Source: JBFMHD01 sp040752395 [NCBI: Candidatus Hydrogenedentota bacterium]
Lineage (GTDB): Bacteria; JBFMHD01
Assembly (NCBI GenBank): GCA_040752395.1
Contig: JBFMHD010000047.1
Span: 1 to 16,188, forward strand
Reading direction: 5' to 3'
DNA length: 16,188 nucleotides
The notes beneath the pieces were generated by a model, which made no database searches, was not told where the DNA came from, and saw only the letters and a list, made by a program, of their open reading frames with translations. Below are positions 101 through 14,536 of this stretch, in pieces. Position numbers and translations under genes: made by a program. Within the stretch, counting starts at the first letter, position 1. The number at the start of each line of letters is the position of its first letter.

Positions 101-1579
101 TCATCCTTCAAGTGCTCTTAACCCTATGCCAAGAGCAACAGGTAAACTACTGATTATTCCGGTATACTTATCTGAATCACCATTGTTTTTAATTAGAAAA
201 AAATCTTTTATATTCAAACGTTCCACAGGGATACCTAATCTTTGGGATAAAAATTCAAATAAACCCTCAATATTTGAAGAACCGCCAGTAATAAACATCC
301 TTGTTATTTTTCTACCCTTATTCTGTGATTCATAATAATTCATCGACCTTGTTATATCATTAATAATCTGTGGTAGCAATAAAGAAAGCACAATACCGAT
401 ATCAGCTACAATTTCTTCTTCCTTTATATTTTTAATATCTACTATTTTTCCTGAGCCACCTTCAATGGATGGTGGCTTTTTTATCCTACCTATTTTTATA
501 AATATATCATCAATGGCTTTTGGTTCGGATTTTGTTTCAGCTGCGATATCTGAAACAAGATGTTTAAAATCACCATCTATTTTTTGTGGTGGTGGCGGAG
601 GCGATGGAGTCAATATCAGTGGTTTCTTACTCTCTTGTTCCTGCACTTTTATCTCTTTAACAGGTTCGGTTTCCTTTATCACTGCTGGTTCTGGCTTTAT
701 TATAGGTTTAAGCCTTGATGAGGGGATTGGTATTTTAGGAATTATCTGGGGTTTAGGTTTGGCTGTAATGATATCGAGGTCAAGGAGACTCTTTTTTGCT
801 ATTTCAGGTTTTATTTTAGCATACTTTTTTTTGAATGTTTCAGCATTTAAAAGACCGCAGGAGAAATCGTTTTCAATTATTTTTGTTATATTATCTCCGC
901 CTAATCCTATATCACGCGAAAATACAGGCTGGTCTTTATCAAAAAGAATAAGTACTGTATTAAATGCACCGATATTAATCAACGCTACAATATCGTCTGA
1001 TTCTTTATATGGTTTTATCACTCTATAAAGATTACTTAAAGCTGAGACATCAGTATCTACGGCATACGGATTCAGCCCGGCAGATTCTATAATCTCAAGA
1101 TATTGTTGAATAACAAACTTTTTGCCCGCTGCCATTATGATATCCATTTTTGAGGAATCGTTTTTATTGCTGGCCGCGACTATATCAGCAGATATGACCA
1201 CATCATTGATATTGAATGGTATGTATTGTTCAGCTTCATTGATGATGGCCTGGTTCAGCTCTGCTCTATCCATTTTTTGAAAAGCAATAAATCTTATTAC
1301 GACAAAATCGCCGGAAATAGAAAAAATTACATTCTTAATATTCGATAATTTAGCTTCTTTTATCGTTTTTCGAATAGTTTGAACATAAATTTCCTTGTGC
1401 TTTAACGGGTTTGATTTATCTATTTCAGCAGGCGGCAGAGGCGAGATAGCTAATCTTTCAACTACATAGTGGTTGTTCTGATTAGCTAATGATAAACATT
1501 TTATAGAATTTGTACCTAAATCTAATGCAAAAACCTTTTTAGCAGCCATATACTTATCAAATAGCGACCTTTTCGACAT
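101..1579 (-). CDS. pilM: PilM-like type IV pilus assembly ATPase with a large proline-rich insertion
   Basis: Actin/FtsA-fold cytoplasmic component that, in type IV pilus systems, binds the PilN N-terminus and links the inner-membrane alignment complex to the PilB/PilC motor. Visible motifs: phosphate-1 loop FALDLGTNSIK (17-27), phosphate-2 region NIGAFNT (202-208), and adenosine motif MFITGGSSNIEGL (428-440). The 1C subdomain covers about 40-190. Family members are about 350 residues; this one is 492 because of a low-complexity segment at about 255-388, rich in Pro, Lys, Ile and Glu and including PSPPPPPQ, inserted in the 2B subdomain. The ATG at 1579 overlaps the end of the kinase gene upstream by 23 bp. 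An alternative ATG at 1549 (residue 11, MAAKKVFALDLG) removes the overlap and is closer to typical PilM starts; neither has a good ribosome binding site. PilM is well supported; the insert's function is unknown. Confidence 0.9.
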   Translation of the reverse strand: MSKRSLFDKYMAAKKVFALDLGTNSIKCLSLANQNNHYVVERLAISPLPPAEIDKSNPLKHKEIYVQTIRKTIKEAKLSNIKNVIFSISGDFVVIRFIAFQKMDRAELNQAIINEAEQYIPFNINDVVISADIVAASNKNDSSKMDIIMAAGKKFVIQQYLEIIESAGLNPYAVDTDVSALSNLYRVIKPYKESDDIVALINIGAFNTVLILFDKDQPVFSRDIGLGGDNITKIIENDFSCGLLNAETFKKKYAKIKPEIAKKSLLDLDIITAKPKPQIIPKIPIPSSRLKPIIKPEPAVIKETEPVKEIKVQEQESKKPLILTPSPPPPPQKIDGDFKHLVSDIAAETKSEPKAIDDIFIKIGRIKKPPSIEGGSGKIVDIKNIKEEEIVADIGIVLSLLLPQIINDITRSMNYYESQNKGRKITRMFITGGSSNIEGLFEFLSQRLGIPVERLNIKDFFLIKNNGDSDKYTGIISSLPVALGIGLRALEG

Positions 1580-2030
1580 TTTTTCTGTATTTATAAAAAA
1601 CTACGGTGGTCCCCTGATTGTTAAGGTACGGTTTTATCTCAAGATGGTCAGCTAATTGGGACATAAGATATAAACCGCGGCCACGTTTCTCAAGTATGGT
1701 TTTGTTAATATCAACAAGTGAAGTGATACTGTAATTTTTCAGTATCTCGTCCTTTGTTAAATGTAAATCACCCCTACCCTCGTCAATGACCTCAACCATT
1801 AATTTTTCATAATCAATAAAAATATTAACAGTAATTTTATTATCACTATATTTCGGGGAGCCATGTTCAATAGCATTTGTGCAAGCCTCATCAAGCAGGG
1901 TTTCGATAACATGTGCATCGGCTTTGTCAAATCCAACACTTTTCGAGAGTTCAGAAATGAATAATCTTATTGGTCTTATATAAATATATCTTGCTGGAAA
2001 AATAAACTGAAAATAGTCTGCTTGTGACAT
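1557..2030 (-). CDS. RsbW/SpoIIAB-like serine kinase (HATPase_c_2 anti-sigma factor)
   Basis: 157-residue single-domain GHKL ATPase. Motifs: N-box LLDEACTNAIEH (45-56, with Glu48 and Asn52), G1 box VIDEGRG (81-87) and G2 box RGRGLYLM (116-123). No phosphoacceptor His domain or membrane segment is present, which fits the RsbW/SpoIIAB/BtrW class rather than a sensor histidine kinase. Family members bind a target such as a sigma factor and phosphorylate a STAS antagonist on Ser or Thr. The STAS gene lies directly upstream with a 3 bp gap, a classical partner-switch arrangement, while the 3' end overlaps pilM. No sigma factor or PP2C phosphatase is in the window, so the target is unknown. The ATG at 2030 has only a weak ribosome binding site, which suggests translational coupling to the STAS gene. 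Confidence 0.88.
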   Translation of the reverse strand: MSQADYFQFIFPARYIYIRPIRLFISELSKSVGFDKADAHVIETLLDEACTNAIEHGSPKYSDNKITVNIFIDYEKLMVEVIDEGRGDLHLTKDEILKNYSITSLVDINKTILEKRGRGLYLMSQLADHLEIKPYLNNQGTTVVFYKYRKNVEKVAI

Positions 2031-2033
2031 AGT

Positions 2034-2372
2034 TTATTTACCAATAATATCCTCAATAGAGTTATAAATATTAAAAATCTGGGTGCCACCAAGTATGTTG
2101 AAAATCATCATATTATGTTCAGATAAAGAGCATATTTTTATGCTGCCTCCCATCCCGGAAAAAACCTGATACCTATGAACAAGAATTCCAAACCCTCTGC
2201 TGTTTATATGACCCAAATCTTTTAGATTAATTATTAAATTAATTTTACCCGAGTCCTTTAACTCATCAAGCGTTTTACCAAGCTGGGTTACATTAGACGC
2301 ATCTATATCACCTTTTATATTTAAGATTGTGAGTCCCTTTCTTTCTTCAATATCAAAAATTAAATCAGCCAC
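2034..2372 (-). CDS. STAS-domain anti-anti-sigma-like protein (RsbV/SpoIIAA family)
   Basis: 112 residues, the normal size for a free-standing STAS protein. Beta-strand TILNIKGDID (15-24) and the phosphorylation loop LGHINSRGFGIL (53-64) match the SpoIIAA loop around DSSG. The phosphoacceptor is Ser58, but the preceding conserved Asp is Asn57 and the following Ser is Arg59. In characterised pairs the unphosphorylated STAS protein sequesters the kinase and frees its target; the kinase gene follows 3 bp downstream. The start is GTG at 2372, chosen because AGAGGAGG lies 8 bases upstream, the strongest ribosome binding site in this part of the cluster. The N-terminus MADLIFDIEERKGL is then a standard first strand. 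Confidence 0.88.
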   Translation of the reverse strand: MADLIFDIEERKGLTILNIKGDIDASNVTQLGKTLDELKDSGKINLIINLKDLGHINSRGFGILVHRYQVFSGMGGSIKICSLSEHNMMIFNILGGTQIFNIYNSIEDIIGK

Positions 2373-2549: not shown

Positions 2550-5500
2550 CTAACGCCTTACCTCGCGCATAGAGCCAACAAACCAGTTGGTTGTCTTGGC
2601 TAACGTACCCTGACCTATCTCAGATAATTTCAAATTCTGCGGATGATTTATAACCAGCTTTGAGCCTTGATTAATGATGAGCTTTTTGCAAACAATCGAG
2701 CCAAGACCTGTTATCTCTACATCTGCATCTGAATTAAGAATAATATTATTATTTGAAAAAATAACACCTGTGTCAATCCTAATCACACCTGAGATCGTTA
2801 TATCACCACCAAGCGCAAATAAATCAAAGATACCCGAATCAACAGATATTGCTAATGGTATGTTCACACTAATATTTCCATCACAGACAATGGCGCCATC
2901 CGGGTTGTCAGGGATATCTGTTACTGTAGCATCACCTGACACATAATAGAGTTTATCAACAGGATCAGTATTATCAAAGGTATAATTACCTGAGATGCTT
3001 TTTTCAGTTATTTCTTTGAATACATCATCATAAGTGAATTGCGGGATATTCTTATATACATCGCTACCAGTATTCCATCTTGATGTATCACTCACAGCAT
3101 AATCAAATGGATAGATGGGTCCAAAAAATGCTTTTCTGACGCCATTAACATCAGCTGTATCAGTATATATAGCGGGGTATGATTTACCAAGAAGTTTTCC
3201 TGGTTGTGGTGCGGCTGGTGTATCGTTTGGTCCAAAATATGCCGATGGATTGGCATTGGTCAATACATCGCCTGTGATGCTTACAATACCTGGTCTTAAA
3301 TCTATCGTATCTTCACTTGCTAAAGCACAGAAATCAAATACACTGAGCGGCGGTTTTTTATATTGGAATAAAGCTACTATTGAATGAGTCTTATCTTTTA
3401 TTTTTCCAGTTGAGGTAACTTTTACTCTGCTCTCAAATGGGAACTTGAAAGGTTCCGAGGCTTCACCCTCATCGCCGATTGAATTAAAATATACAGTGTC
3501 TGCATTATCAGTTATACCATTCTGAAAAATAAAGAGACTATTATCATTAAGTTTTATATAATATTCAATAGCGCCCCCGGTATAATTGAAATCATATCTG
3601 TAATAATACTTATTACTGCCGGTAAATTCTTCAATCCCTGGTGGTGCATTAAAATTTTCAGGTGGTTGCCATGCTTCACCAATTTTTCGCCACACAAGCT
3701 GAAACTGGGCATCTTTTCTACCTATAACACCTGCAAAGAATTTTACCGTACCCTGGGCTGTTGGCCAGGCAGGGCTACGCATAGTATATTTTGTAGGGCT
3801 TCCTGTAGATTCAACAGCTTCTTTGCTAACCGGGTTATGCCAGCAAGCAAGTAAATCACGCTTTTGAATAACAAATCGGAACGGGCTTTTTATCGCATCA
3901 GACCAGGCACCTATTCTATATCCTGTTATGCCATTATCATCATAAGCATAGAGGAATCGACGTTCTGCCCGGGTTAAAAGATAATTACTTCCTGGCGCTT
4001 CATAAGGATTATTTATCTCAAAAAAGTATTCGATGGTATCACCAACATTAGCATTTAAATACCTGACACCAGCTGTACCACCTGTACCTAAATTTACACC
4101 CTCGTATTTATATAACCAGGCATTACCATAATCAATGTTACCAAAAGTACGCCAATAATTGAAAGTATCAGAAGCATCAGATTGAGGAGTATACCATTTG
4201 ATACTGCCATCAACATAGTATTCATCGTCACCAACTAAAACTTTATAAGAGTTGTTCCAGTTAGCATCATAGGTAGCGTGTCCAACTCGGTTGACTCTTA
4301 TAAACAAAAGAATATTTAATATTTCATTATGAGATGTATGAACGTTGTTAGTTGCATCAACCACTTTATAGAAATGGTCTTGCGGGTCACCAGGCGGGAC
4401 ATCGTAGGCACCGACAGAAAAGTTTACGTCTGCGTTTTCTTTGGGTTCACGGTTAGCACGCATTGTTTCATTGGAGTTTTCCCAGGATTTGTAATAAAAC
4501 GTATATGGGTCGTGCCAGATAGGATAATCTATCGGTATCACGACTGTTTGCGAAGCAGCACCTAACATACCACGTCTATCACGTGCCCAGATTCTTAGAT
4601 AATATGTCTGACCTAAACTTAATATAAAATTCTCGCTGCCATCACCATTCGGGACTGTCCAGGAAGTTTGTGGTAAGTAGTTGTTATGATATACAACAGT
4701 ATTAACAGGACCTGCACCTGTTTGTGAGCTGTTAATCACCCAGTTTGATTGCCATTGTAAGAAACCGTTACCATCAGTATTTGGAGAGGTACTTATCTGG
4801 ATATAATAACCAAGTATAGAATCGCCAGAATCACCGTCAGGCGATACAGGGTTCCAGGTTATAACAGGGTTATTTGTAAGAATAGTATCACCACTACTTC
4901 GCCAGATACCAAAAACGCTGTCATAATATCTGATATTTGAAGGTGCGGATGGTAGACGCGGGTTTAGAGCATCACCATCAAAATCAAATGCGATATCAAT
5001 ATAAGAAAATATATTACCATCGCTTAGTTCATCCTTCCATTCAGTTGAGGTGCTGTATAGTCCATAACTCAGTGCATCTAAAATATCAGAGGCAGAATTT
5101 GCGATATCAGCTGTCTTGTCCACTGTTTGTGGGTCTCCACCAATACGTTTAGCAGTTGCAATGGTTAATCTAATACGGTCAGGCCGCTTTGAGAATTTTA
5201 AATCGCTCCAGGATACCCGGGCTTCCATAAAATTATCATTAACGTTTATAGCAACAGCTGAGGCAGCGGATAATACCCAGCCAGAACCAGGATTGTAATA
5301 ATCATAAATATATACGCCATCTATATCCATAATAATATTTTTCTCCGAGTACTGTTCTGTCCTACCAAGTAGGGTGCTTGGCTGGATGCCATCAGACCGC
5401 GATTCATCACCTATCCAGTCTAATCCCAGCGTACCGCCCTCGGGATTAGAATTAATGTGGGTATCCATAGCTACGTTGAACTGAAACATATTAGCACCGT

Positions 5501-6965
5501 TAACATTATCTAAATCATCTGCTCTAACAAAGAAATATAAATAATAAGTATCAGCTATTATATGGATATCCCTGATATCGTATGTAGGTCCGTCTCCGAG
5601 AACAGTCGTTTCATCGTACAACTTATCTCTCCAAACCCATTCTGTATCAATTTTATTTGTTGCAAGTATTGCTGTGTTACCGATATAAGGCAGGGTATCA
5701 AACCAATCAGATTTGTTACCATCTATGGTACGCTTGTATTGTCCAAATGTAATTATTACGGTCGAATCAGTGGCATTAAAATTAGTGCTGGTAGCCTTAA
5801 TTTCTACGGTACCACCTATAGTTGATCTAATATGAACCCTCGCAAACCCGTGTGCATCTGTCTGATCAACGCTGTCAGAAATATCACCACCAAAAAAAGA
5901 AGCTTGTCCGCTAATAATTGAGAACGTGACGTTTTCTATAGATTTCGGATAACCATTAGCATCAGCTACATAAACATAAATCGTTGAAGAGTCAGTACCA
6001 TTAGCTAAACAGCTATATTTAGATGCATCTATTCCTTCGATTACATAGCGAAAATAAAATTCGGGGGGGGCTCCTGATGGCGGTGTTCCCAATGTTCCCC
6101 AGGTGGTTGCGGTATCTGATGCGTTGTTTCTATAAACATAAACATCATTAGCATCACTATCATCACGGAAATGGATGTGATAATTAACTATCCCGGGCGT
6201 ACTGAAAGTCAATTGCGTGTACCAGATGTCATAACCGTACTGTGAGTCATCCCATACATGGGACCAGGTATTTGCAGAAGTCGACCAGCTACCACCATTA
6301 TAGTGATACCAGGTCCTATACTGATACCAGAACTCTATCTGGTCAGCGTCGTCGCGTGCCTCACGATAATATATCTTAACTGTAGAATCAGTAAATACCT
6401 GCTGGGGCTGACGCTGGAGTCCTGTAATACCCCACTGATTGTTCAGATTGGGATTATGACCGACTTTATCCCATTGGATATTATCATCAGAGCCGCCATC
6501 TTTAATAGTAAATTGTATTTTATCTGCTGGATCCATTCCTGCACCATCAGTATATTTATCATCATTACCATCAGTTCCTTCGCCATGAGCATACCATTTT
6601 ATTGTGGCATTGGGTGTAAAAGATGGTAAAACATATTGAAAATTATCATTGTTGCCAGCCTGGGAATCAAATGTCATATTTTGTTCTGAGGCCTGCCAGG
6701 AACCATTAACAGACCAGTTTATATAACAATAAGAATTTTGGCCTGCAGGGGGTGTAGTAACACTTCCCAGATCATCATAAAACTCAACCCAGACCCTGAC
6801 CCTTTCCCAGGGCATACAATAATTATCATAACTGAGTCCGGGGTTCCACCCATTTCCACCACTCCAATATATTTCCTGCCAGGTCGCTCCTATCCATGGT
6901 GCGGAATAAATCGCTTTTACATTAACTATAAAAAATAGAATCAAAATTAATTTAAAAATCTTCAT
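2550..6965 (-). CDS. Very large exported multidomain protein with PilX-type C-terminal region
   Basis: 1471 residues. A signal peptide (Lys2-Lys5, hydrophobic 6-16, cleavage likely near VKA18 or YSA22) marks it as exported. Regions read by eye: two Tyr/Trp-rich Ig-like modules (about 50-155 and 190-290); a Big-1-like domain (about 311-408, with QTDAHGFARVHI); a CBM9/DOMON-like module starting IDGNKSDW (414-421) and running to about 665; a fibronectin III-like module (about 671-813); more Tyr/Trp-rich modules (about 815-1165); and from about 1178 a segment with VKVTSTGKIK, VSITGDVLTN, YYVSGDATV and DGNISVNI that resembles the C-terminal half of PilX-like proteins, where repeated short beta motifs follow a StG turn. 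It sits directly after three pilin-like genes, the slot used by PilY1 tip adhesins, though I see no PilY1 propeller signature. A run of eight C on the coding strand (6063-6070) falls at residues 299-301. A pilus-tip or surface adhesin role is inference. Confidence 0.85.
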   Translation of the reverse strand: MKIFKLILILFFIVNVKAIYSAPWIGATWQEIYWSGGNGWNPGLSYDNYCMPWERVRVWVEFYDDLGSVTTPPAGQNSYCYINWSVNGSWQASEQNMTFDSQAGNNDNFQYVLPSFTPNATIKWYAHGEGTDGNDDKYTDGAGMDPADKIQFTIKDGGSDDNIQWDKVGHNPNLNNQWGITGLQRQPQQVFTDSTVKIYYREARDDADQIEFWYQYRTWYHYNGGSWSTSANTWSHVWDDSQYGYDIWYTQLTFSTPGIVNYHIHFRDDSDANDVYVYRNNASDTATTWGTLGTPPSGAPPEFYFRYVIEGIDASKYSCLANGTDSSTIYVYVADANGYPKSIENVTFSIISGQASFFGGDISDSVDQTDAHGFARVHIRSTIGGTVEIKATSTNFNATDSTVIITFGQYKRTIDGNKSDWFDTLPYIGNTAILATNKIDTEWVWRDKLYDETTVLGDGPTYDIRDIHIIADTYYLYFFVRADDLDNVNGANMFQFNVAMDTHINSNPEGGTLGLDWIGDESRSDGIQPSTLLGRTEQYSEKNIIMDIDGVYIYDYYNPGSGWVLSAASAVAINVNDNFMEARVSWSDLKFSKRPDRIRLTIATAKRIGGDPQTVDKTADIANSASDILDALSYGLYSTSTEWKDELSDGNIFSYIDIAFDFDGDALNPRLPSAPSNIRYYDSVFGIWRSSGDTILTNNPVITWNPVSPDGDSGDSILGYYIQISTSPNTDGNGFLQWQSNWVINSSQTGAGPVNTVVYHNNYLPQTSWTVPNGDGSENFILSLGQTYYLRIWARDRRGMLGAASQTVVIPIDYPIWHDPYTFYYKSWENSNETMRANREPKENADVNFSVGAYDVPPGDPQDHFYKVVDATNNVHTSHNEILNILLFIRVNRVGHATYDANWNNSYKVLVGDDEYYVDGSIKWYTPQSDASDTFNYWRTFGNIDYGNAWLYKYEGVNLGTGGTAGVRYLNANVGDTIEYFFEINNPYEAPGSNYLLTRAERRFLYAYDDNGITGYRIGAWSDAIKSPFRFVIQKRDLLACWHNPVSKEAVESTGSPTKYTMRSPAWPTAQGTVKFFAGVIGRKDAQFQLVWRKIGEAWQPPENFNAPPGIEEFTGSNKYYYRYDFNYTGGAIEYYIKLNDNSLFIFQNGITDNADTVYFNSIGDEGEASEPFKFPFESRVKVTSTGKIKDKTHSIVALFQYKKPPLSVFDFCALASEDTIDLRPGIVSITGDVLTNANPSAYFGPNDTPAAPQPGKLLGKSYPAIYTDTADVNGVRKAFFGPIYPFDYAVSDTSRWNTGSDVYKNIPQFTYDDVFKEITEKSISGNYTFDNTDPVDKLYYVSGDATVTDIPDNPDGAIVCDGNISVNIPLAISVDSGIFDLFALGGDITISGVIRIDTGVIFSNNNIILNSDADVEITGLGSIVCKKLIINQGSKLVINHPQNLKLSEIGQGTLAKTTNWFVGSMREVRR
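6063..6070 (-). repeat. Homopolymeric C8 tract inside the large exported gene
   Basis: Eight consecutive G on the plus strand (C on the coding strand) encode the end of SGAPPEF at about residue 300 of 1471. A one-base slip would truncate the protein after roughly its first fifth. It is the longest G/C run I noticed in the window. Confidence 0.9.
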
Positions 6966-7067
6966 AAAATATCTTCAAAGTTAAGTTTTCGGTTATCCGA
7001 CCTCAGCACTTCGGCACTGGTGTCTTTCTTGCCTCTTGCTTCTATAATACCACCTATAACTAAGTGG
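6966..7067. repeat. Gap with AAGCAAG-type repeat and TAACCACTTAGTTATA motif
   Basis: This 102 bp separates the PilX-like N-terminal gene from the large exported gene. On the minus strand it starts at the upstream stop codon with TAACCACTTAGTTATA, followed by TATTATAGAAGCAAGAGGCA, both words shared with the region after rseP and the gap at 14537-14640. The remainder (AAGACACCAGTGCCGAAGTG and on) has no recognised signal. The large gene has only a weak GAAGA ribosome binding site 6 bases before its ATG. Confidence 0.6.
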
Positions 7068-7424
7068 TTACATAAAGGGTTCAATAGTTACTGTAATCTG
7101 GCCGCCTTCGAAATTTATCGTTCCTTGTGCAGGTTGAGTATCAAAGGGGTTTCGTTGACCAGTTACAAGGTTTTCAATCTCAGTTGAGAAATTATGATCA
7201 GTATTAAGTTTTTGAAGCGTGAGCTCAAGCCCTGTTTCAGCAAGATGTCTGTCTTTAGCTATAAATCTGTAAAAGATAGTTGTGAGTGATTCCTGTTGAT
7301 GCGAAAAAGTTATAGCGAGCGCCATAATAAAAGCTATAACAAGAAGAACGATAGCAACGACAATAGCGGCGCCACCACGCATGGATCGAAGCGACAATTG
7401 GCGACTTTCTGCGAATGTCGACAT
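7068..7424 (-). CDS. PilX/GspK-like pilus protein, N-terminal part only
   Basis: 118 residues when started at the ATG at 7424. That start lies 1 base after the stop of the upstream gene and has GAGGT 9 bases upstream. A longer frame from 7475 would add 17 residues and overlap the upstream gene by 50 bp without a ribosome binding site, so I reject it. The N-terminus has MRGG followed by a hydrophobic segment AAIVVAIVLLVIAFIMALAI, then LAETGLELTLQKL, the usual PilX/GspK-type sequence after the pilin helix. It ends at GGQITVTIEPFM, just where PilX-type proteins normally continue into a StG-containing beta-rich domain. A similar domain is found at the C-terminus of the next gene. This is probably a minor pilin-like membrane protein, shortened or split. 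Confidence 0.75.
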   Translation of the reverse strand: MSTFAESRQLSLRSMRGGAAIVVAIVLLVIAFIMALAITFSHQQESLTTIFYRFIAKDRHLAETGLELTLQKLNTDHNFSTEIENLVTGQRNPFDTQPAQGTINFEGGQITVTIEPFM

Positions 7425-7425
7425 C

Positions 7426-8118
7426 TTATCTACCTCGCTTGTAATTCGTGATTGCAGTAATCCTTGTTTCTTCATAGATATCTGGCATATTTCTTCTGAA
7501 AAATCCCCGTTTCTTTTTTCTTATAGATAACGTAATGGCGATACGATCAATGGGTACATCTTTTTCAAAATTAAATAAAGTATTATCATAATCAGATGCG
7601 ACGAAAGTATTGCCGTCAACGTTATGGATAGAAAAATTCCAGGAAAAAGTATCACCGGTTTCAATAGAATCAAGGTTAAAAATTCGGGTAATTTCATAAT
7701 CTGAATTATTATATTTATCGACCTCACGAAATATTCTGCGATTCTGCAAACGATAAACAAAGGTATCAAAATCATCATCTTCAGGATGGTTTTCCCAATC
7801 ATCAGTATCCTTTGGGTCATCAGCACATATAAAGACAAATTGGGTAGCATTGCTCAGTATATCGAAATTTCGCTGGGTCTGAACAAAACCTGTGAAATCT
7901 TGTTTAAACCAATAAGTTATATTCTTCAAATCTCGCTGAATCCTCAATCTTTCTTCTGATTCCTGATATGCGATATAGATAGCGCCAAAAATTTTATTCA
8001 ATGCAAAGATTACAGCTGAGATGATAGCAACTACTACAAGAAGTTCAACAAGAGTAAACCCATACATAAAGACTTGAGACTTGTTAGGGCATCTACTCTG
8101 TCTTTGGTAAAGTTTCAT
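7426..8118 (-). CDS. PilW/GspJ-like pseudopilin
   Basis: 230 residues with a class III prepilin signal: a basic 20-residue leader ending MYG, cleavage before Phe21, then FTLVELLVVVAIISAVIFAL with Glu at mature position +5. The acidic, beta-rich remainder (about 60-230) has no catalytic motif. Size and position between a PilV/GspI-like and a PilX-like gene fit PilW/GspJ, a minor pilin that joins the initiation/tip complex after cleavage by the prepilin peptidase. The ATG at 8118 has AAGAGG 8 bases upstream, and that site lies in GAGGCAAGAT, a word of the local intergenic repeat. The gene is 16 bp from the upstream pseudopilin and 1 bp from the next start, so translation is probably coupled. 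Confidence 0.85.
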   Translation of the reverse strand: MKLYQRQSRCPNKSQVFMYGFTLVELLVVVAIISAVIFALNKIFGAIYIAYQESEERLRIQRDLKNITYWFKQDFTGFVQTQRNFDILSNATQFVFICADDPKDTDDWENHPEDDDFDTFVYRLQNRRIFREVDKYNNSDYEITRIFNLDSIETGDTFSWNFSIHNVDGNTFVASDYDNTLFNFEKDVPIDRIAITLSIRKKKRGFFRRNMPDIYEETRITAITNYKRGR

Positions 8119-8134
8119 AATCTTGCCTCTTACC

Positions 8135-8590
8135 CTATCTTTTCAATCCGTGTCTTGTAATAACACAGACCACAGTTTCTGATCTTGTATTTTTTTCTAC
8201 TGTCCAGCATACTACAGTTTCAATCTTAATAAAATCTGTTGGAATATCAGCTAATGCTGCATCTGAAAGACTACCATTAGCATTCTGTTTTTGATATCTA
8301 ATGAATGTTTTTCTTGAATAAATGCTTCCGGGCAATTTACCTTCATCAAACGAAGCAGAAAGATTATAAGCGAGCGAGTCCGCCTCAATCTTACTGAAAC
8401 CATAAGACCTTAATTCTTCAAGTTTCTCAGCAGCAAGATGGCTTGAGCAAGCAACAGTCCCGATATGAAACGTATTCATCTCGAGCCTGTTTAACGCAAG
8501 AACAATCGGTAAAAGCCCTAAAGCTAAAATAGATAATGCTATGAGAAGCTCAATTAAAGAAAAGCCGTTACGCCTATGTTCTGGATTCAT
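8135..8590 (-). CDS. PilV/GspI-like pseudopilin
   Basis: 151 residues. The leader MNPEHRRNG is followed by FSLIELLIALSILALGLLPI, a textbook type IV prepilin cleavage and methylation site (cleavage after Gly9, Glu at mature +5). The LGLLPIVLAL segment and the AAEKLEELRSYGF stretch resemble PilV/GspI proteins. It is expected to insert in the inner membrane, be processed by a prepilin peptidase (not in the window) and join the minor-pilin tip complex. The ATG at 8590 is preceded by AAGGGG, closer to the start than usual. It is the first of the pseudopilin genes and is separated from pilC by a repeat-filled 193 bp gap. Confidence 0.85.
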   Translation of the reverse strand: MNPEHRRNGFSLIELLIALSILALGLLPIVLALNRLEMNTFHIGTVACSSHLAAEKLEELRSYGFSKIEADSLAYNLSASFDEGKLPGSIYSRKTFIRYQKQNANGSLSDAALADIPTDFIKIETVVCWTVEKNTRSETVVCVITRHGLKR

Positions 8591-8783: not shown

Positions 8784-9995
8784 TCAATGTATCAGATCAG
8801 CAAGACTAAGTATCGGTAAAAATAAAGCGATTATAACAAAACCAAGTACAATACCCAGAAAGACAATGAGTATAGGTTCAATAAGAGAAGAGAAGGCTTC
8901 TACAGCAACATCAACCTGCTCTTCATAAAAATCAGATGCTTTAATAAGCATCTCACCCAGATTCCCGGTAGATTCGCCAACAGCTACCATTTGAACTACA
9001 AGCGGCGGGAAGATACCGCTTTGTTTTAAAGGTTGAGCAAAGGTTTGACCTGAACGGATTGATTCCTGCACATTAGCAATAGTATCTTCTATGATAAGAT
9101 TAGCTGCTGTTTTAGTAACAACGTTAAGAGCCTGAATTATAGGTACACCACTTATAGTTAAAGTGCCAAGTGTTCGGCTGAATCTTGATATAGAAACTTT
9201 TAAGATAAGTTCACCAAAAACAGGCATTTTTAGTTTATATTTGTCAATAACTCTACGGATATTTTCGTTCTTTAACCCTATCCTGTAGATCACATATAAA
9301 ATTATAAACCCAAGAAATACAAAAAGGTAGTAAACTCTGATTAAATCAGAGATAAACATAAGAATTCTGGTGGGTAGCGGGAGATGAGCTCCTGCATGAG
9401 CAAAAGTATCAGCAAATTTCGGGACGACAAATGTGAGGATACCCCATACAATGAGTATCGCTATGGATGAGACTACAACAGGATAAGTCATAGCACCCTT
9501 GATTTTACGCCTTAATCGCTCTGTGTTCTCAAGATACGTAGCAAGTCTTTCAAGGATTACATCAAGGACTCCACCAGCTTCACCTGAACGTAACATATCC
9601 ACATACATAGTCGAAAATATTTTAGGGTGTTTAGATAAAGCCTCAGATAAATCTGAACCACTCTCTATATCATGAATAAGTTTACCGATAATTTCTTTAA
9701 AATATTCACCTGACATTTGTTCCTGCAGGGTTCTTAATGAAGTAACAATTGGTAGTCCAGCATTAATAAGTGTTGCAAACATTCTGGTGAATAGCACAAG
9801 TTCTGAGCTTTTGACTTTTTTCTTTGTGAAGATATTAATATAACTCAATATAGATTCTTTGATTTCTTCAACATTTAAGACGGTTAATTCCTGGGCTCTT
9901 AATCTTGTTATAATTTCTCTGGGATTGGCGCCGAGAAGAACGCCCTGAACAAGCTCGCCTGATCGGTTTTTTGCTTTATAACTGAATTCTGGCAA
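8784..9995 (-). CDS. pilC: PilC/GspF inner-membrane platform protein
   Basis: 403 residues, normal for the family. The N-terminal FSYKAKNRSGELVQG and LRAQELTVLNV are typical of PilC/GspF. Two tandem T2SSF domains follow, about 70-190 (with FATLINAGLPI and SGEAGGVLD) and 272-394 (with TISGVPIIQAL and VGESTGNLGEML). Three membrane segments lie near 171-192, 220-238 and 370-394. The protein is the platform on which the PilB hexamer turns to extract and assemble pilins. The start is TTG at 9995, supported by AGAGGAG 7 bases upstream; no ATG in frame fits the conserved N-terminus. The gene is bracketed by 100 bp direct repeats on both sides. I cannot tell PilC from GspF by sequence alone; the pilM neighbour favours the pilus name. 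Confidence 0.93.
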   Translation of the reverse strand: MPEFSYKAKNRSGELVQGVLLGANPREIITRLRAQELTVLNVEEIKESILSYINIFTKKKVKSSELVLFTRMFATLINAGLPIVTSLRTLQEQMSGEYFKEIIGKLIHDIESGSDLSEALSKHPKIFSTMYVDMLRSGEAGGVLDVILERLATYLENTERLRRKIKGAMTYPVVVSSIAILIVWGILTFVVPKFADTFAHAGAHLPLPTRILMFISDLIRVYYLFVFLGFIILYVIYRIGLKNENIRRVIDKYKLKMPVFGELILKVSISRFSRTLGTLTISGVPIIQALNVVTKTAANLIIEDTIANVQESIRSGQTFAQPLKQSGIFPPLVVQMVAVGESTGNLGEMLIKASDFYEEQVDVAVEAFSSLIEPILIVFLGIVLGFVIIALFLPILSLADLIH

Positions 9996-10136: not shown

Positions 10137-11843
10137 TTATATAAGCGCATCTTCAGTTGCTACTCGCCATAACTCTTCAACCGATGTGACACCACTTAAT
10201 ACTTTACGAACACCTGCCTGCCTTAAAGTCCGCATACCGTCAGCCAATGCCTGGTCTTTTAGCTCAGATGATGATGCCCGCTGAATAATTAACCGTTTCA
10301 GTTGTTCCGTTACTCTGAGGATCTCAAATATACCTATTCTGCCCCTGTAACCAGTATTACTGCAATCATCGCAACCTCTGCCGCGATAGAGTTTTATATT
10401 ATGATTTATATCTTTAATTTTTAATGCCTTGATAAATTCAGGTGAAGGTGTATATGCTTCTTTACAGGATTCACATATTTTACGAACAAGTCTTTGAGCA
10501 ACAACCATAATCAGTGATGAAGTAATAAGAAACGGCTCGACACCCATATTATCAAGCCGCACAATAGCACCTGGTGCGTCGTTTGTATGGAGCGTAGAGA
10601 AAACAAGGTGTCCGGTAAGTGCGGCATTAATAGCTATTTCAGCGGTTTCCTGGTCACGGATCTCGCCTATCATCAGGATATCCGGGTCCTGTCTTAATAT
10701 AGAACGAAGAGCTGAGGCAAAAGTTAAACCGATCTGGGGTCTTGCTGGCATCTGATTTATGCCGTGTAAAATATATTCTATCGGATCTTCAACTGTTACA
10801 ATATTATCTTCCTGAGTATTTATCATATTGAGAGCTGAATATAATGTTGTGGTTTTACCGCTACCCGTTGGTCCTGTAACAAGTATGATACCATGTGGTT
10901 CTTTTATATAATTTTTGAAAACTCTAAGTTCATCTTCATCCATCCCGAGTTTATCAAGCTCAACCATCATTCCGCTTTTATCAAGTATTCGCATAACCAC
11001 TTTTTCACCGAATGAGGTTGGTAGCGTAGAAATTCTGAAATCTACCTCTTTATCAGCAAGTCTGACCTTGAATCTACCGTCCTGTGGTAGACGTCTCTCT
11101 GCGATGTCAAGTTCTGCCATAATTTTAATACGGGAGATAATAGCGTTCTGGAACCGTTTTGGCGGCGGGGTGACTTCGTATAAGACACCATCTATTCTAT
11201 ATCTGACTCTAAAAGTATTTTCATAGGGTTCAAGATGTATATCAGTAGCTTTGGCTCGCAATGCCTCCATTATAATAAGGTTCACCATTTTGATTATAGG
11301 CGTTTCTTCGGATTGCTCTTTAAGTTCTGCAACCGAGGTTTGTGATTGCGAGAGATCAACGAGTTCAACACCATCCTCATCAATGTTTTCAAGTATCTCT
11401 TCCATAGTTCCGGCAATATCATAAAGCTGAGTTATCGCATTTTTTATGGCAGATGCAAAAGAAACCATTACTTCAATCTTAGGATAACCCGTAATCATTT
11501 TGATATCATCAATGAGATAGATATTAGTAGGGTCAGCCATAATAATCTTCAAAGTATTGCCTTCTTTTTGAAAAGGGATAACAATTTGTTCTTTGACAAT
11601 CTGCTCGGGTATAATTTTTTTCAATTTAGGTTCAATGGTATCGATTTTCGATGCATCTATATATTTAAGGTTTAACTGTTCGGCAAGTGTGCGTGCTATA
11701 TCTTCTTCATTTATTATCCCCATTCCCTTAAGGATGTCACCTAATCTGCCGCCCTTTTTCTTTTGTATCTCCAGTGCATCGTCAAGGTCTTTTTTAGTTA
11801 TTTTTTTGTTTTCAATAAGAATTTCACCGATGAGTTTTCTCAC
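10137..11843 (-). CDS. pilB: PilB/GspE assembly ATPase
   Basis: 568 residues. An N-terminal MshEN-type domain (about 1-145, with RLGDILKGMGIINEEDIA), common in PilB and able in some relatives to bind cyclic di-GMP, precedes the ATPase core. Motifs: Walker A GPTGSGKTTT (324-333), Asp box TVEDPIEY (350-357), Walker B DPDILMIGEIRD (386-397) and His box TGHLVFSTLHTN (410-421). A CESC...CDDC tetracysteine zinc site (457/460/491/494) is typical of PilB and GspE and absent from PilT. It powers pilin extraction with PilC, encoded next. The start is GTG at 11843 with GGAG 8 bases upstream. It is the first gene of the pilus cluster, behind a promoter and palindrome at 11982-12031. PilB and GspE cannot be fully separated by motifs. 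Confidence 0.95.
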   Translation of the reverse strand: MRKLIGEILIENKKITKKDLDDALEIQKKKGGRLGDILKGMGIINEEDIARTLAEQLNLKYIDASKIDTIEPKLKKIIPEQIVKEQIVIPFQKEGNTLKIIMADPTNIYLIDDIKMITGYPKIEVMVSFASAIKNAITQLYDIAGTMEEILENIDEDGVELVDLSQSQTSVAELKEQSEETPIIKMVNLIIMEALRAKATDIHLEPYENTFRVRYRIDGVLYEVTPPPKRFQNAIISRIKIMAELDIAERRLPQDGRFKVRLADKEVDFRISTLPTSFGEKVVMRILDKSGMMVELDKLGMDEDELRVFKNYIKEPHGIILVTGPTGSGKTTTLYSALNMINTQEDNIVTVEDPIEYILHGINQMPARPQIGLTFASALRSILRQDPDILMIGEIRDQETAEIAINAALTGHLVFSTLHTNDAPGAIVRLDNMGVEPFLITSSLIMVVAQRLVRKICESCKEAYTPSPEFIKALKIKDINHNIKLYRGRGCDDCSNTGYRGRIGIFEILRVTEQLKRLIIQRASSSELKDQALADGMRTLRQAGVRKVLSGVTSVEELWRVATEDALI

Positions 11844-12003: not shown

Positions 12004-12031
12004 ATTATACTTAAAAATTTATTCTTTTCAA
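12004..12031 (-). promoter_or_regulatory. Predicted sigma-70-type promoter for the pilus cluster
   Basis: On the minus strand TTGAAA (12031-12026), 16 bp, then TATAAT (12009-12004): 5/6 and 6/6 matches to consensus. The -35 box lies inside the last codons of glmM. The expected start is near 11997, leaving a leader of about 150 nt to the pilB GTG. Confidence 0.65.
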
Positions 12032-13354
12032 GAGTAATTTTAAATTTTTTTCATCACAGGATTCTGCAATGATTCGAATAATAGGCTCTGTATTGGACGG
12101 TCTGATATGAAGCCAGTATGACGAGGTATAAATTTTAATACCATCACGGGTATCTAACCTCTCGCCAGGGATAAGTTTAATGGTCTTTTTAATTCTGTTA
12201 AACTGGTTTTTTTCTTTAAGTTTTATTTTCTTTTTTAAGGTTCTGTATTTTTTCACAGATTTGAATATCTGGGATAATGGCTTATCTTCTTTTGCCATAA
12301 GTTCAAGAATTAAAGCCATAGAAATAAAAGAATCTCTACCATAATGCATAGCAGGATGTATAACACCACCATTACCCTCGCCACCTATACAGGCTCTTTT
12401 GTTCTTCATCATAGAGACAACAAAGACCTCACCTACTTTTGAATAATAAATTTTACCTTTGTATTTTAAGACCTCGTCTCTTACAATGTAAGAGGTTGAG
12501 AGATTGGTTACAACGGCTCTATTCTCATTTTCTTTACTTAGAACGTTTCTTACACATAAAGCAAGTGTCATATCTTCTTGAGGCACCTCACCCTTCTCAG
12601 ATATCAAAACCAATCTATCAGCATCAGTATCCTGTGCAAAACCGACATCATATTCTCCCTGCCGAATTATATTAGATGTAATTTTTAAATTTTCAGCTGA
12701 AGGCTCAAGAGGATGAAGGAATTCACCGTCCATATATAATCCAGAACCACTAACATCACAGCCCAATTCTTTTAATAATTTTATACCTATACAGGCGCCA
12801 GCACCACCATTAGCATCAAGAAAAACTCTGAACCTCTTTTTTTTAATATTTTTTAAATTGACTATCTTCTTTATTTTAGAGATATATTTATCAACCCACG
12901 TGTTATCTACCCTGAAGTCACCCCTGCTTTTATTATTAGCCCATTTTAAAGTATCCTTGTTTTTTAAATAATTACTTAGTTTTGCTATTAACTTTTCATC
13001 AAAAAAAGTACCATCATCTTTAATAAACTTTAGACCGTTCCACTCTGGAGGATTATGGCTCGCACTTATTACTATGCCACTGGCTGACTTGTAATATTCT
13101 ACTGCGAACTGAACACAAGGTGTCGGTGCCATACCGATGTCTATTACATCAAACCCGCATAATGAAATAACAGATGAAATAATTTTTGAAAAATTTAAGC
13201 TTGTGTTTCTGGTATCCCTGCCTATGACAATAGTTTTATTTTCTGTTATCCGGACTGTTTTTAAAAAAGCCCTGACAAGATCATTCACGATATCAGGCGT
13301 AAAACTTTCGCCAACTATGCCACGAGCTCCCGAAGGTCCGAGAATAAGACTCAT
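12011..13354 (-). CDS. glmM: Phosphoglucosamine mutase-type sugar phosphomutase
   Basis: 447 residues from the ATG at 13354, the alpha-D-phosphohexomutase family length. Catalytic phosphoserine loop SASHNPPEWNGLKF (101-114 if numbered from an upstream GTG at 13366), metal site DTDADR (246-251), sugar loop GGEGNGGVI (328-336) and phosphate-binding RPSNTEPIIRI (422-432). The GEGNGG form of the sugar loop is the one found in Bacteroidetes- and archaeal-type GlmM/phosphomutases rather than E. coli PGM. Likely reaction: glucosamine-6-phosphate to glucosamine-1-phosphate for UDP-GlcNAc, though mannose or glucose phosphates cannot be excluded. I choose the ATG at 13354 over the GTG at 13366 because the GTG lies in an AAGTGAG heptad repeat. 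It follows the BON-like gene by 26 bp and probably shares its promoter. Confidence 0.88.
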   Translation of the reverse strand: MSLILGPSGARGIVGESFTPDIVNDLVRAFLKTVRITENKTIVIGRDTRNTSLNFSKIISSVISLCGFDVIDIGMAPTPCVQFAVEYYKSASGIVISASHNPPEWNGLKFIKDDGTFFDEKLIAKLSNYLKNKDTLKWANNKSRGDFRVDNTWVDKYISKIKKIVNLKNIKKKRFRVFLDANGGAGACIGIKLLKELGCDVSGSGLYMDGEFLHPLEPSAENLKITSNIIRQGEYDVGFAQDTDADRLVLISEKGEVPQEDMTLALCVRNVLSKENENRAVVTNLSTSYIVRDEVLKYKGKIYYSKVGEVFVVSMMKNKRACIGGEGNGGVIHPAMHYGRDSFISMALILELMAKEDKPLSQIFKSVKKYRTLKKKIKLKEKNQFNRIKKTIKLIPGERLDTRDGIKIYTSSYWLHIRPSNTEPIIRIIAESCDEKNLKLLLKRINF

Positions 13355-13380
13355 ATTACTTCTCACTTCTTACTTCTATT
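13355..13380. repeat. Short AAGTRAG heptad repeat before glmM
   Basis: On the minus strand AGAAGTAAGAAGTGAGAAGT lies directly before the glmM ATG, the same heptad words as at 2451-2485 and 8605-8630. It replaces a conventional ribosome binding site. Confidence 0.7.
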
Positions 13381-13698
13381 TTATATTTCTGGTTGCTGAG
13401 GGGGTGCTTCTTTAATGAATTGATGTACAGGCTTCCACGAACTACCCTCTTTTTTCCAATTAGCTAATCTCCAGTTAATTGATTTTAGATTAGGAACCTT
13501 TCGTAACTCTTTATCAAGCATTTTCATATGTAGCGGTTTAGAGAACTTATCCTGCTCTCTGTGACTCCTTGGAAGTAATACACCAATAATCACAACATCA
13601 CCCTGAGTTGACGAAATCGTTAAGAGATTGGTATTGATCCCCCTTTTTGTGAGCATCTGCTCTATACGAATGTTTATTACTCTATCTTCAACACTCAT
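13381..13698 (-). CDS. Small BON-like protein of unknown function
   Basis: 105 residues from the ATG at 13698 (MSVEDRVINIRIEQML), preferred over a TTG six codons upstream because AGGCGGG precedes it. The pattern of an amphipathic helix (about 2-18), a strand with GDVVIIGVLLP (33-43), a second helix LDKELRKVPNL and a strand SINWRLANW resembles a BON fold (helix, then strand ending in G, then helix-V-strand). No signal peptide or membrane segment is seen, which is unusual for periplasmic BON proteins. The Pro/Gln-rich tail ends PPQQPEI. It lies directly behind a strong promoter and 26 bp before glmM. The fold assignment is tentative. Confidence 0.6.
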   Translation of the reverse strand: MSVEDRVINIRIEQMLTKRGINTNLLTISSTQGDVVIIGVLLPRSHREQDKFSKPLHMKMLDKELRKVPNLKSINWRLANWKKEGSSWKPVHQFIKEAPPQQPEI

Positions 13699-13720
13699 TT
13701 TTTCCCGCCTTTTCAACCTG

Positions 13721-13807: not shown

Positions 13808-14536
13808 CTAATATATCAACGTTGGACTAAAGTAGTTGTTAGTAAATAGGTATTTAGGATTTGAGACCTCAGTGTATATATCCTTCACATTGTTAAATAT
13901 TGTGGCGTTATCGTCAAAATATTCTGCGTATCCTTTTCGTAAATCTCTTAAAGCTGTTAATAATTCGATGCCCTCGATAGAGGGGATAAAAATATTATGA
14001 GTCAACCATTTAATAGTATTATCAATCTTCTCTACAATTTCTTTATACTTACTATTTTTATCTTTTAATAATTCTATTCTATTTTTAATTTCAGTATCAA
14101 AAGTTTTACCAATGAGGTCTGACTCATCTGTGAGCACGTTCATCATTGCTCTGATTCTGAAGAAATTTACCATTGCTATAAATTTTCCAAGATTAGATAA
14201 GCTCTTTGTCTCAGTGATAAATAAGATATTTCTGAAATAGACAAAGAACGGGGCGGCATCATTGAATATTTCTGATAAAAGAAATATGCTGTCTTTTTCA
14301 GAAATAATATCAAGTAATTTTCTCTTGCTGGATAAAATATCGAGTCCTATAGTCTTATCTTCACTTTTATTAATAAATTCATTATTTTTCCATGTGTAAA
14401 TATCATAACCTTCCTCAATAACCACTTTCTGTCCGGGATGTATTATAGGTAATATAACAGGCTGTTCAGGGAGAGTTGACTCTTTTTTTTCTTTAATTTT
14501 TTGTAGTTTCTGTAATGCTCTTTGTATCTGGCTCAT
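13808..14536 (-). CDS. Unrecognised 242-residue soluble protein
   Basis: I do not recognise this family. The N-terminus MSQIQRALQKLQKIKEKKE is a short charged amphipathic helix. A Pro-rich linker (22-35) follows, then an alpha/beta-looking part (36-135, with hydrophobic strands DSIFLLSEI and NILFITET) and a helical part (about 140-225). There is no signal peptide and no convincing membrane segment; the hydrophobic patch KFIAMVNFFRIRAMMNVL (118-135) is interrupted by Arg. No catalytic motif stands out. The ATG at 14536 has a weak ribosome binding site. It lies between rseP and the glmM promoter, separated from each by about 100 bp carrying repeat words, so operon membership is uncertain. Confidence 0.7.
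   Translation of the reverse strand: MSQIQRALQKLQKIKEKKESTLPEQPVILPIIHPGQKVVIEEGYDIYTWKNNEFINKSEDKTIGLDILSSKRKLLDIISEKDSIFLLSEIFNDAAPFFVYFRNILFITETKSLSNLGKFIAMVNFFRIRAMMNVLTDESDLIGKTFDTEIKNRIELLKDKNSKYKEIVEKIDNTIKWLTHNIFIPSIEGIELLTALRDLRKGYAEYFDDNATIFNNVKDIYTEVSNPKYLFTNNYFSPTLIY

What the first reader, a model, noticed from the sequence alone, without database searches (positions are those of the whole stretch)
2550..7424. A PilX-type protein apparently split, with its C-terminal half fused to a giant exported protein
The 118-residue gene has the PilX/GspK-like N-terminus (hydrophobic helix, LAETGLE) and stops at GGQITVTIEPFM. PilX-like proteins of many candidate phyla continue here into a segment with StG, followed by beta-rich repeats such as GDV, YYVSGD and GNI. 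That segment is found instead at residues about 1178-1471 of the next gene (VKVTSTGKIK, VSITGDV, YYVSGDATV, DGNISVNI), after about 1150 residues of adhesin-like modules and behind its own signal peptide. One reading is insertion of a secreted multidomain ORF into a pilX gene, giving two proteins that may reassemble at the pilus tip.
Basis: partly seen in the sequence, partly recalled or inferred. Interest (0 to 1): 0.7.

Follow-up and report, generated by a model that had tools for sequence, protein, structure and literature searches.

The report
Split pilus-tip pilin on giant protein
Two neighbouring genes each hold part of one pilus-tip subunit, and the second part sits at the end of a very large exported protein, which suggests that the two proteins join to put that large protein at the tip of a bacterial pilus.

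Summary
The 118-residue gene (7068-7424, minus strand) is the N-terminal part of a PilX/GspK-type minor pilin. The last ~293 residues (from about 1179) of the next gene (2550-6965, 1471 aa) are the rest of the same pilin. Joined in a script, the parts align along intact PilX proteins: 46 bits against 28 for the short part alone. The alignment score peaks at this boundary against sliding windows and shuffles. The break lies between two adjacent strands of the pilin sheet, as read by alignment with the solved relative ComZ. It is not an assembly accident. One divergent genome (G318) has the same operon order, short PilX and a giant 47% identical with the same tail; there the two genes overlap by ATGA. 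The solenoid part of the tail also matches PilX-like proteins in 8 of 39 Riflebacteria genomes. I infer that the giant completes the beta-sheet of short PilX and so becomes a tip protein, in the operon place that PilY1 takes elsewhere. Docking, tip location and ligand are untested. Precedents: Geobacter two-gene major pilins and predicted PilX-PilY1 strand complementation. New variant of a known kind.

The parts
7068..7424 (-). Short PilX (118 aa): prepilin-type hydrophobic helix, LAETGLE, then GTINFE and GQITVTIEPF; stops where intact PilX goes on into the STG strand
   Evidence: conserved in G318 (56% over 77 aa)
2550..6965 (-). Giant exported protein (1471 aa) ending in the C-terminal part of PilX
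6900..6965 (-). Signal peptide of the giant (about residues 1-22), judged by eye; the only hydrophobic segment above the threshold used
6036..6887 (-). Residues 27-310: beta-rich-looking modules without a Pfam match; absent from the G318 giant
5745..6026 (-). Residues 314-407: bacterial Ig-like domain Big_1
   Evidence: E 4.4e-11
4896..5744 (-). Residues 408-690: 'IDGNKSDW' surface module (looks DOMON/CBM9-like, recalled; no Pfam match); recurs in other very large ORFs
3432..4895 (-). Residues 691-1178: further modules (FN3-like by eye), 52-56% identical in G318 up to residue 1172
3351..3431 (-). Residues 1179-1205: the PilX strand pair SRVKVTSTGKIKDKTHSIVALFQ that follows the break in intact PilX
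2601..3350 (-). Residues 1206-1455: PilX linker and beta-solenoid
   Evidence: (10-residue blocks at pLDDT 61-82 only within residues 1345-1444)
2550..2600 (-). Residues 1456-1471 and stop: ends WFVGSMREVRR, resembles the ...SWREE end of intact PilX
6966..7067 (-). 102-nt spacer between short PilX and giant, with a hairpin (about 7049-7068, including the last base of the stop) that lacks a T-run; the scan found no promoter-like or terminator-like site of this strand in the spacer
7426..8118 (-). PilW-like minor pilin
8135..8590 (-). PilV-like minor pilin
8784..9995 (-). GspF/PilC platform protein
   Evidence: E 3.5e-62
10137..11843 (-). PilB/GspE extension ATPase
101..1579 (-). PilM

Best explanation
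This is a minor pilin encoded in two genes. Short PilX supplies the membrane-anchored helix and the first strands of the pilin head. The giant protein has its own Sec-type signal peptide, and its C-terminus supplies the remaining strands plus the PilX beta-solenoid. Shown by sequence: the split, the position of the break, the homology of both parts to intact PilX, and the same arrangement in a second genome. Inferred: in the periplasm the giant's C-terminal strands complete the open beta-sheet of short PilX (strand complementation between chains), PilX is built into the PilV-PilW tip complex, and the ~1150-residue multi-module part is carried outward at the pilus tip as an adhesin or sensor, in the operon place that PilY1 takes elsewhere.
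For: (1) Joined parts align along 20 intact PilX: hhalign E 3.5e-11 against 8.5e-9 for the N-part alone; HMMER 45.6 against 27.6 bits, with one unbroken domain across the junction (model 11-135 of 375). (2) hhalign score of short PilX plus 299 residues is 87.0 from residue 1173; 36 other windows at 32-residue steps give 55.4-69.8, the two highest being the overlapping neighbours 1141 and 1109; 200 shuffled tails mean 57.1, sd 2.1, max 67.2. With only 45 residues added, the best four of 235 offsets are 1179, 1173, 1167 and 1161. (3) Lengths fit: 117+293 residues; 14 of the 20 intact PilX are 402-441 aa, the range being 336-493. (4) The tail matches ORFs in 8 of 39 Riflebacteria genomes; 7 of the 8 were read in full, and all 7 start with a pilin-like helix and lie beside minor pilin genes. 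(5) G318 has GspE-GspF-PilV-PilW-short PilX-giant in the same order: 57, 52, 46, 35, 56 (over 77 aa) and 47% identity (over 1084 aa), with an ATGA overlap of short PilX and giant. (6) A 15-row intact-PilX profile hits ComZ of Thermus thermophilus (PDB 6QVI, E 3.7e-4), aligned across the break region. ComZ has a GspK-like five-stranded head with the solenoid between its last two strands and was argued to be a tip pilin (PMC6561018, passages and one section). (7) PilX-PilY1 strand complementation was predicted in all four complexes modelled in PMC13190605 (passages). (8) Geobacter major pilins are two proteins (PMC10191384, PMC5174107, passages).
Against: No complex was modelled, and no ComZ coordinates were at hand; strand assignment is by alignment. 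Alone, the tail is weak against intact PilX: hhalign E 6e-4 for one sequence and 0.0025 for the window+G318 pair, whose alignment does not lay STG on STG; HMMER gives the tail 7.9 bits in all, though its best piece is the strand pair on the right model positions (99-135). The reversed tail, joined, scores 69.2, above the best shuffle, so part of the score is composition. In G318 the best 45-residue offset of 129 is 781, with 805 and 808 next. The Riflebacteria matches cover only the solenoid part (about residues 1326-1448), not the strand pair. Only one other genome shows the split. Solenoids of this kind also occur in exported ORFs that are not pilins. AlphaFold of the tail alone had mean pLDDT 45.7 and no significant PDB match (best E 0.075, an ice-binding solenoid; ComZ rank 8, E 1.6). 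phmmer of short PilX against the PDB found no pilin.
Confidence: 0.65

Rival explanations
1. The giant is a substrate of a type II secretion-like pseudopilus: its PilX-derived tail is a docking tag by which the tip lifts it out through the secretin, after which it is released or stays on the surface.
For: The ATPase passes both the PilB (686 bits, cut-off 675.65) and the GspE (665 bits, cut-off 630.25) models. I see no PilT and no major pilin gene among the window's ORFs. Interaction of T2SS effectors with the minor pilin complex is described in PMC10191384 (passages).
Against: A strand pair, the solenoid and the C-terminal end are much for a tag. PilM lies in the operon neighbourhood.
Confidence: 0.2
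2. The C-terminal domain is only a mobile beta-solenoid module of exported proteins, and its nearness to a short PilX is incidental; short PilX works alone.
For: Solenoids matching the intact-PilX model occur in four ORFs with a signal-like instead of a pilin N-terminus (L184, L185, L186, L189; four of six such loci fetched).
Against: Those four matches begin at model positions 122-132, after the strand pair (model 97-121); in the giant the pair is the best-matching piece. Order and adjacency to short PilX recur in G318, with an ATGA overlap. The C-terminal end resembles that of PilX.
Confidence: 0.1
3. The pilX gene is broken (pseudogene or assembly error) and the neighbouring giant is unrelated.
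For: Short PilX is shorter than any of the 20 intact PilX (336-493 aa).
Against: Both parts are conserved about as well as the rest of the operon in a second genome with different spacing, and the stretch between them is over 750 residues in both.
Confidence: 0.03

Closest known systems
ComZ of Thermus thermophilus (PDB 6QVI), GspK-like minor pilin with beta-solenoid
   Same: Same architecture as the joined parts: helix, pilin sheet, beta-solenoid placed before the last strand; an intact-PilX profile hits it at E 3.7e-4
   Different: One chain; no large multi-module part; shown to bind DNA (PMC6561018, passages)
Geobacter major pilin in two genes (PilA-N/PilA-C, GSU1496/GSU1497)
   Same: Helix and head on two adjacent genes, inferred gene fission (PMC5174107, PMC10191384; passages)
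   Different: Major pilin, small head protein, no giant; there the cut separates helix from head, here it appears to run through the beta-sheet
PilY1/PilC tip adhesin with PilX
   Same: Large exported multi-module protein encoded beside the minor pilin genes; predicted strand complementation with PilX (PMC13190605, passages)
   Different: The giant has no PilY1 family match and carries a PilX-derived C-terminus
Modular pilins (PilB and PilC of Streptococcus sanguinis)
   Same: Adhesive modules grafted on a minor pilin (PMC9934059, passages)
   Different: One chain with modules at its C-terminus; here the modules lie N-terminal to the second pilin part, on a separate chain
DUF7305-type PilX proteins
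   Same: Intact form of the same kind of protein; DUF7305 matches at E<=0.001 in 30 of 290 sampled genomes, pilins and non-pilins together
   Different: One chain in the 20 ORFs read here, which were chosen for having a PilX-like N-terminus

Membership tests
PilX/GspK-type minor pilin (ComZ-like, with solenoid) | N-terminal hydrophobic helix with AEAG-like motif | tested here: met
   Short PilX: RGGAAIVVAIVLLVIAF... LAETGLE; hhalign E 8.5e-9 to 20 intact PilX
PilX/GspK-type minor pilin (ComZ-like, with solenoid) | Pfam PilX_N or NCBIfam GspK above curated cut-off | tested here: not met
   No Pfam match for short PilX; GspK E 0.0011, 18.5 bits, cut-off 130
PilX/GspK-type minor pilin (ComZ-like, with solenoid) | Pilin head and solenoid in the same chain | tested here: not met
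   Divided between two genes here and in G318
PilX/GspK-type minor pilin (ComZ-like, with solenoid) | Both parts together give a complete PilX | tested here: met
   hhalign 315 columns, E 3.5e-11; boundary peak; one domain across the junction, 45.6 bits in all
PilX/GspK-type minor pilin (ComZ-like, with solenoid) | Genomic place after pilV and pilW | tested here: met
DUF7305 (PF23981) | Match to the Pfam model | tested here: not met
   No match at E<=10 for the tails of window and G318; of three Riflebacteria PilX scanned one matches below the cut-off, E 0.0047
PilY1 (PF05567) | PilY1 domain | tested here: not met
   No PF05567 match for the giant at E<=1
PilY1 (PF05567) | Large protein with signal peptide encoded after pilX | tested here: met
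   signal peptide judged by eye
PilY1 (PF05567) | No other PilY1 in the genome | tested here: inconclusive
   0 of 6 genomes (G318 included) matched, but the control search rang in none of 14 genomes; window genome not held
Two-gene pilin as in Geobacter | Helix part and head part on adjacent genes, related to a full-length pilin | tested here: met
Two-gene pilin as in Geobacter | The two proteins bind and enter the filament together | not testable with these tools
   needs complex prediction or biochemistry

The most novel reading that the evidence does not exclude
Tip proteins of type IV pili can arise, and be anchored, by dividing a modular PilX into two chains that restore the pilin sheet between them. 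PilY1, which is predicted to share a beta-sheet with PilX, may be an old product of the same route, and the window and G318 would show the step with both parts still recognisable.
Probability: 0.12. Interest if true: 0.85.

Novelty: new variant of a known kind. Interest (0 to 1): 0.66.

Why it matters
The attachment of large non-pilin proteins to pilus tips rests, in the papers seen here, largely on structure prediction. Here the attachment surface can be read from sequence: the piece missing from one protein is found at the end of the other, in two divergent genomes. That makes strand complementation at the tip directly testable with two small soluble constructs, and gives a concrete route by which a pilin can become a pilin plus a separately exported adhesin.

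Tried and rejected
Relatives of the operon by GspF in genome contigs: best 80 of 445 relatives kept, best 47% identity, no blastp match to giant or short PilX in their ORFs at E<=1e-3. Giant in 23 genomes behind those loci: 1, the Riflebacteria one. Giant in 193 genomes of the phylum of L009, an Omnitrophota MAG: 0; in 45 genomes of the L062 phylum: 0; tail in the 3 genomes of the L039 phylum: 0. Giant in 290 relatives of G012: 4, of which only G318 covers the tail; in the 2 held genomes of the G318 phylum: G318 only. Profile of residues 408-1471 in 386 relatives of G318: 9 genomes; beyond the known locus the matches lie in the first 350 of 1086 positions, not in the tail, and the tail model found nothing in the ORFs of those loci. 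Tail profile in 339 relatives of G001: G318 only. These genome sets overlap. Programmed frameshift: rejected, as the parts are over 1100 residues apart in the window and the giant has its own start and signal peptide. Terminator between the genes: the spacer hairpin has no T-run, and the two terminator-like sites of the scan (7354-7378) lie inside pilX. Repeats among giant modules: of 21 pairs the best is 160-312 with 1060-1172, E 0.0046. AlphaFold of an intact Omnitrophota PilX, to see the broken strand pair: too poor (mean pLDDT 40.4). The T4P loci of G668, G502 and G366 (GspF about 48-49%) have another gene order and no giant.

Selection of the 20 intact PilX: 18 ORFs from 14 of the 30 loci L153-L182, plus 2 of L009, kept by eye for an N-terminal hydrophobic helix and an AEAG-like motif. 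The other 16 loci were left out: partial ORFs, a signal-like or Tad-like N-terminus, or a helix without the motif (e.g. L170, L178). Six of the 16 were looked at again.

A first run of the core model missed modules in seven loci because of HMMER's filters; with filters off they are found.

Literature: six phrases for a split pilin or DUF7305 gave 0 papers; searches listed no report of a split PilX in the titles and abstract starts shown. Most subscription papers are not held.

Full report
What is there. The window carries a type IV filament operon on the minus strand: GspE/PilB (10137-11843), GspF (8784-9995), PilV-like (8135-8590), PilW-like (7426-8118), a 118-aa PilX-like gene (7068-7424), a 1471-aa ORF (2550-6965), a STAS protein, an RsbW-like ATPase and PilM (101-1579). 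No whole genome is held for the window, so its taxon is unknown; a GspE tree of 38 rows puts it on a long branch beside Omnitrophota, which is only a hint.

The observation. The short gene begins with a prepilin-type hydrophobic helix, has LAETGLE and stops after GGQITVTIEPFM. The large protein has one hydrophobic segment above the threshold used, at its N-terminus, a Big_1 domain at 314-407 and otherwise stretches without a convincing Pfam match. Curated models do not see PilX in either protein: Pfam gives nothing for the short gene or for the tail at E<=10, and NCBIfam GspK is sub-threshold.

Homology of the two parts to intact PilX. I searched DUF7305 (PF23981) in 290 genomes: 30 had a match at E<=0.001, 24 of them above the family cut-off, and G318 and G458 had none. 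From 14 of the 30 loci, and from L009, I kept 20 ORFs with a PilX-like N-terminus. In L153, for example, DPFSGIQSYGGGTYQVTIAPLAANQYKVSSTGKFGNPTIAKTLNIIM runs in one chain. In the window the same passage is NPFDTQPAQGTINFEGGQITVTIEPF at the end of the short gene, and SRVKVTSTGKIKDKTHSIVALFQ from residue 1179 of the giant (position checked). Many of the intact proteins end in a W followed by acidic or charged residues, such as ISWEEE or SWREE; the giant ends WFVGSMREVRR. By hhalign against the 20: short PilX pair (window, G318) E 8.5e-9; tail pair alone E 0.0025, with STG not on STG; joined pair E 3.5e-11 over 315 columns, with STG on STG. By HMMER with a 375-position model of the 20: short PilX 27.6 bits, tail 7.9, joined 45.6, with one domain (41.1 bits) from model position 11 to 135 running across the junction; in tail and giant alone the best piece is the strand pair on model positions 99-135 and 97-135.

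Controls. With single window sequences short PilX scores 53.1 by hhalign; with the 299 residues from 1173 it scores 87.0; with 36 other 299-residue stretches 55.4-69.8; with 200 shuffled tails mean 57.1, sd 2.1, max 67.2; with the reversed tail 69.2. The first 85 residues from 1173 give 72.2, against a best of 60.4 in 60 shuffles. With 45-residue stretches the four best of 235 offsets are 1179, 1173, 1167 and 1161. In the G318 giant, offsets 805 and 808 rank second and third of 129, behind 781, whose stretch overlaps the same passage. Six other segments of the giant, tested alone, give E of 0.094 or worse.

Riflebacteria. With the tail as query, 8 of 39 genomes of the phylum of L079 (a Riflebacteria MAG) match at E<=0.01, best 3.1e-5. 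The matches cover about residues 1326-1448, the solenoid part. Seven loci were read in full; in all seven the match is in the C-terminal part of a 645-849-aa ORF that starts with a hydrophobic pilin-like helix and lies beside minor pilin genes. The eighth (L081) is cut by the contig end and is followed by two minor pilin-like ORFs.

Conservation of the split. One genome, G318, has the whole arrangement (locus L093): GspE, GspF, PilV, PilW, a 139-aa PilX ending GGTITVVIEPYE, then a 1098-aa giant. Identities are 57, 52, 46 and 35% for the first four, 56% over 77 aa for PilX and 47% over 1084 aa for the giant. By segment the giant is 47-56% identical up to residue 1330 and 36% after it. The stop of short PilX overlaps the start of the giant (ATGA; sequence, reading). 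The G318 giant lacks about 385 residues at the start of the window giant, Big_1 included, and has its signal peptide directly before the IDGN..DW module. The two pilin parts stay together while the outer modules change.

Where the break lies. A 15-row profile of intact PilX hits ComZ of Thermus thermophilus (6QVI, E 3.7e-4), aligned from QAFYAAEAG through GRYTATLYKD and FTLVSEGTSGG to FRIS; the next hits, E 0.34 and 0.35, are not significant (the second is a Geopilin domain 1 protein). According to its paper (passages and one section read) the ComZ head has one helix and five antiparallel strands, its closest structural match is GspK, and the solenoid is inserted between the last two strands. 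Read on that order, short PilX would carry the helix and two strands, the giant the other three strands and the solenoid. This strand count is my inference from alignment. AlphaFold on the tail alone had low confidence (mean pLDDT 45.7), better in the solenoid part; its PDB matches were not significant and were led by ice-binding solenoids, ComZ at rank 8. The ComZ paper names an ice-binding protein as the closest relative of its solenoid.

Mechanism. A head lacking part of its sheet is unlikely to fold alone. The most economical reading is that the giant, exported by its own signal peptide, completes the sheet of short PilX, and that the pair enters the PilV-PilW tip complex. PilX-PilY1 strand complementation was predicted in all four tip complexes modelled in PMC13190605 (passages), and Geobacter major pilins are two proteins (PMC10191384, PMC5174107, passages). 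The giant sits where pilY1 sits in other operons but has no PilY1 match. The rival that it is a T2SS-like cargo stays open, because the ATPase passes both PilB and GspE models and I see neither pilT nor a major pilin gene in the window.

Mobile solenoids as a rival. I fetched six of the left-out DUF7305 loci. In four (L184, L185, L186, L189) an ORF with a signal-like N-terminus matches the intact-PilX model, from positions 123, 132, 127 and 122 on; the other two had no match. The strand pair lies on model positions 97-121, so these ORFs have the solenoid without it. The giant has the pair.

Limits. The window's genome is not held; the split is seen in two loci only; the direction of change is not rooted; docking, tip location and ligand are untested. 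Absence of PilY1 in G318 is not shown, because the control search rang nowhere. I found no report of a split PilX in the open-access library (listings only).

Noticed in passing
window 4896-5744; L103-L108, L110, L111: The giant's residues 408-690 are a surface module without a Pfam match that recurs seven times in a 5520-aa ORF of G279 (L104) and in other ORFs, several of them over 2000 aa.
   Followed up: partly
L184, L185, L186, L189: DUF7305-like solenoids occur in ORFs with a signal-like instead of a pilin N-terminus.
   Followed up: partly
window 1557-2372 and 101-1579: A STAS protein and an RsbW-like ATPase stand between the pilus genes and PilM, and the ATPase ORF overlaps the PilM start. 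STAS-like ORFs also lie in Fibrobacterota pilus loci L055, L056, L059 and L074.
   Followed up: no
window 12011-13366: Phosphoglucosamine mutase matches the archaeal-type GlmM model above its cut-off (451 bits against 439).
   Followed up: no
window 7049-7068: Hairpin directly after the short PilX stop, without a T-run; the 126-nt stretch folds better than shuffles (z -2.7, 1 of 200 as good). It could tune the ratio of the two proteins.
   Followed up: partly
window 13381-13716 and 13808-14536: Two ORFs without a Pfam match over a curated cut-off, between GlmM and RseP.
   Followed up: no
L174/L187: A 1442-aa ORF of G531 with a signal-like N-terminus and a DUF7305 match over the cut-off ends RIILWREQL, like a PilX end, but no minor pilin was flagged nearby and the intact-PilX model did not hit it.
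   Followed up: partly
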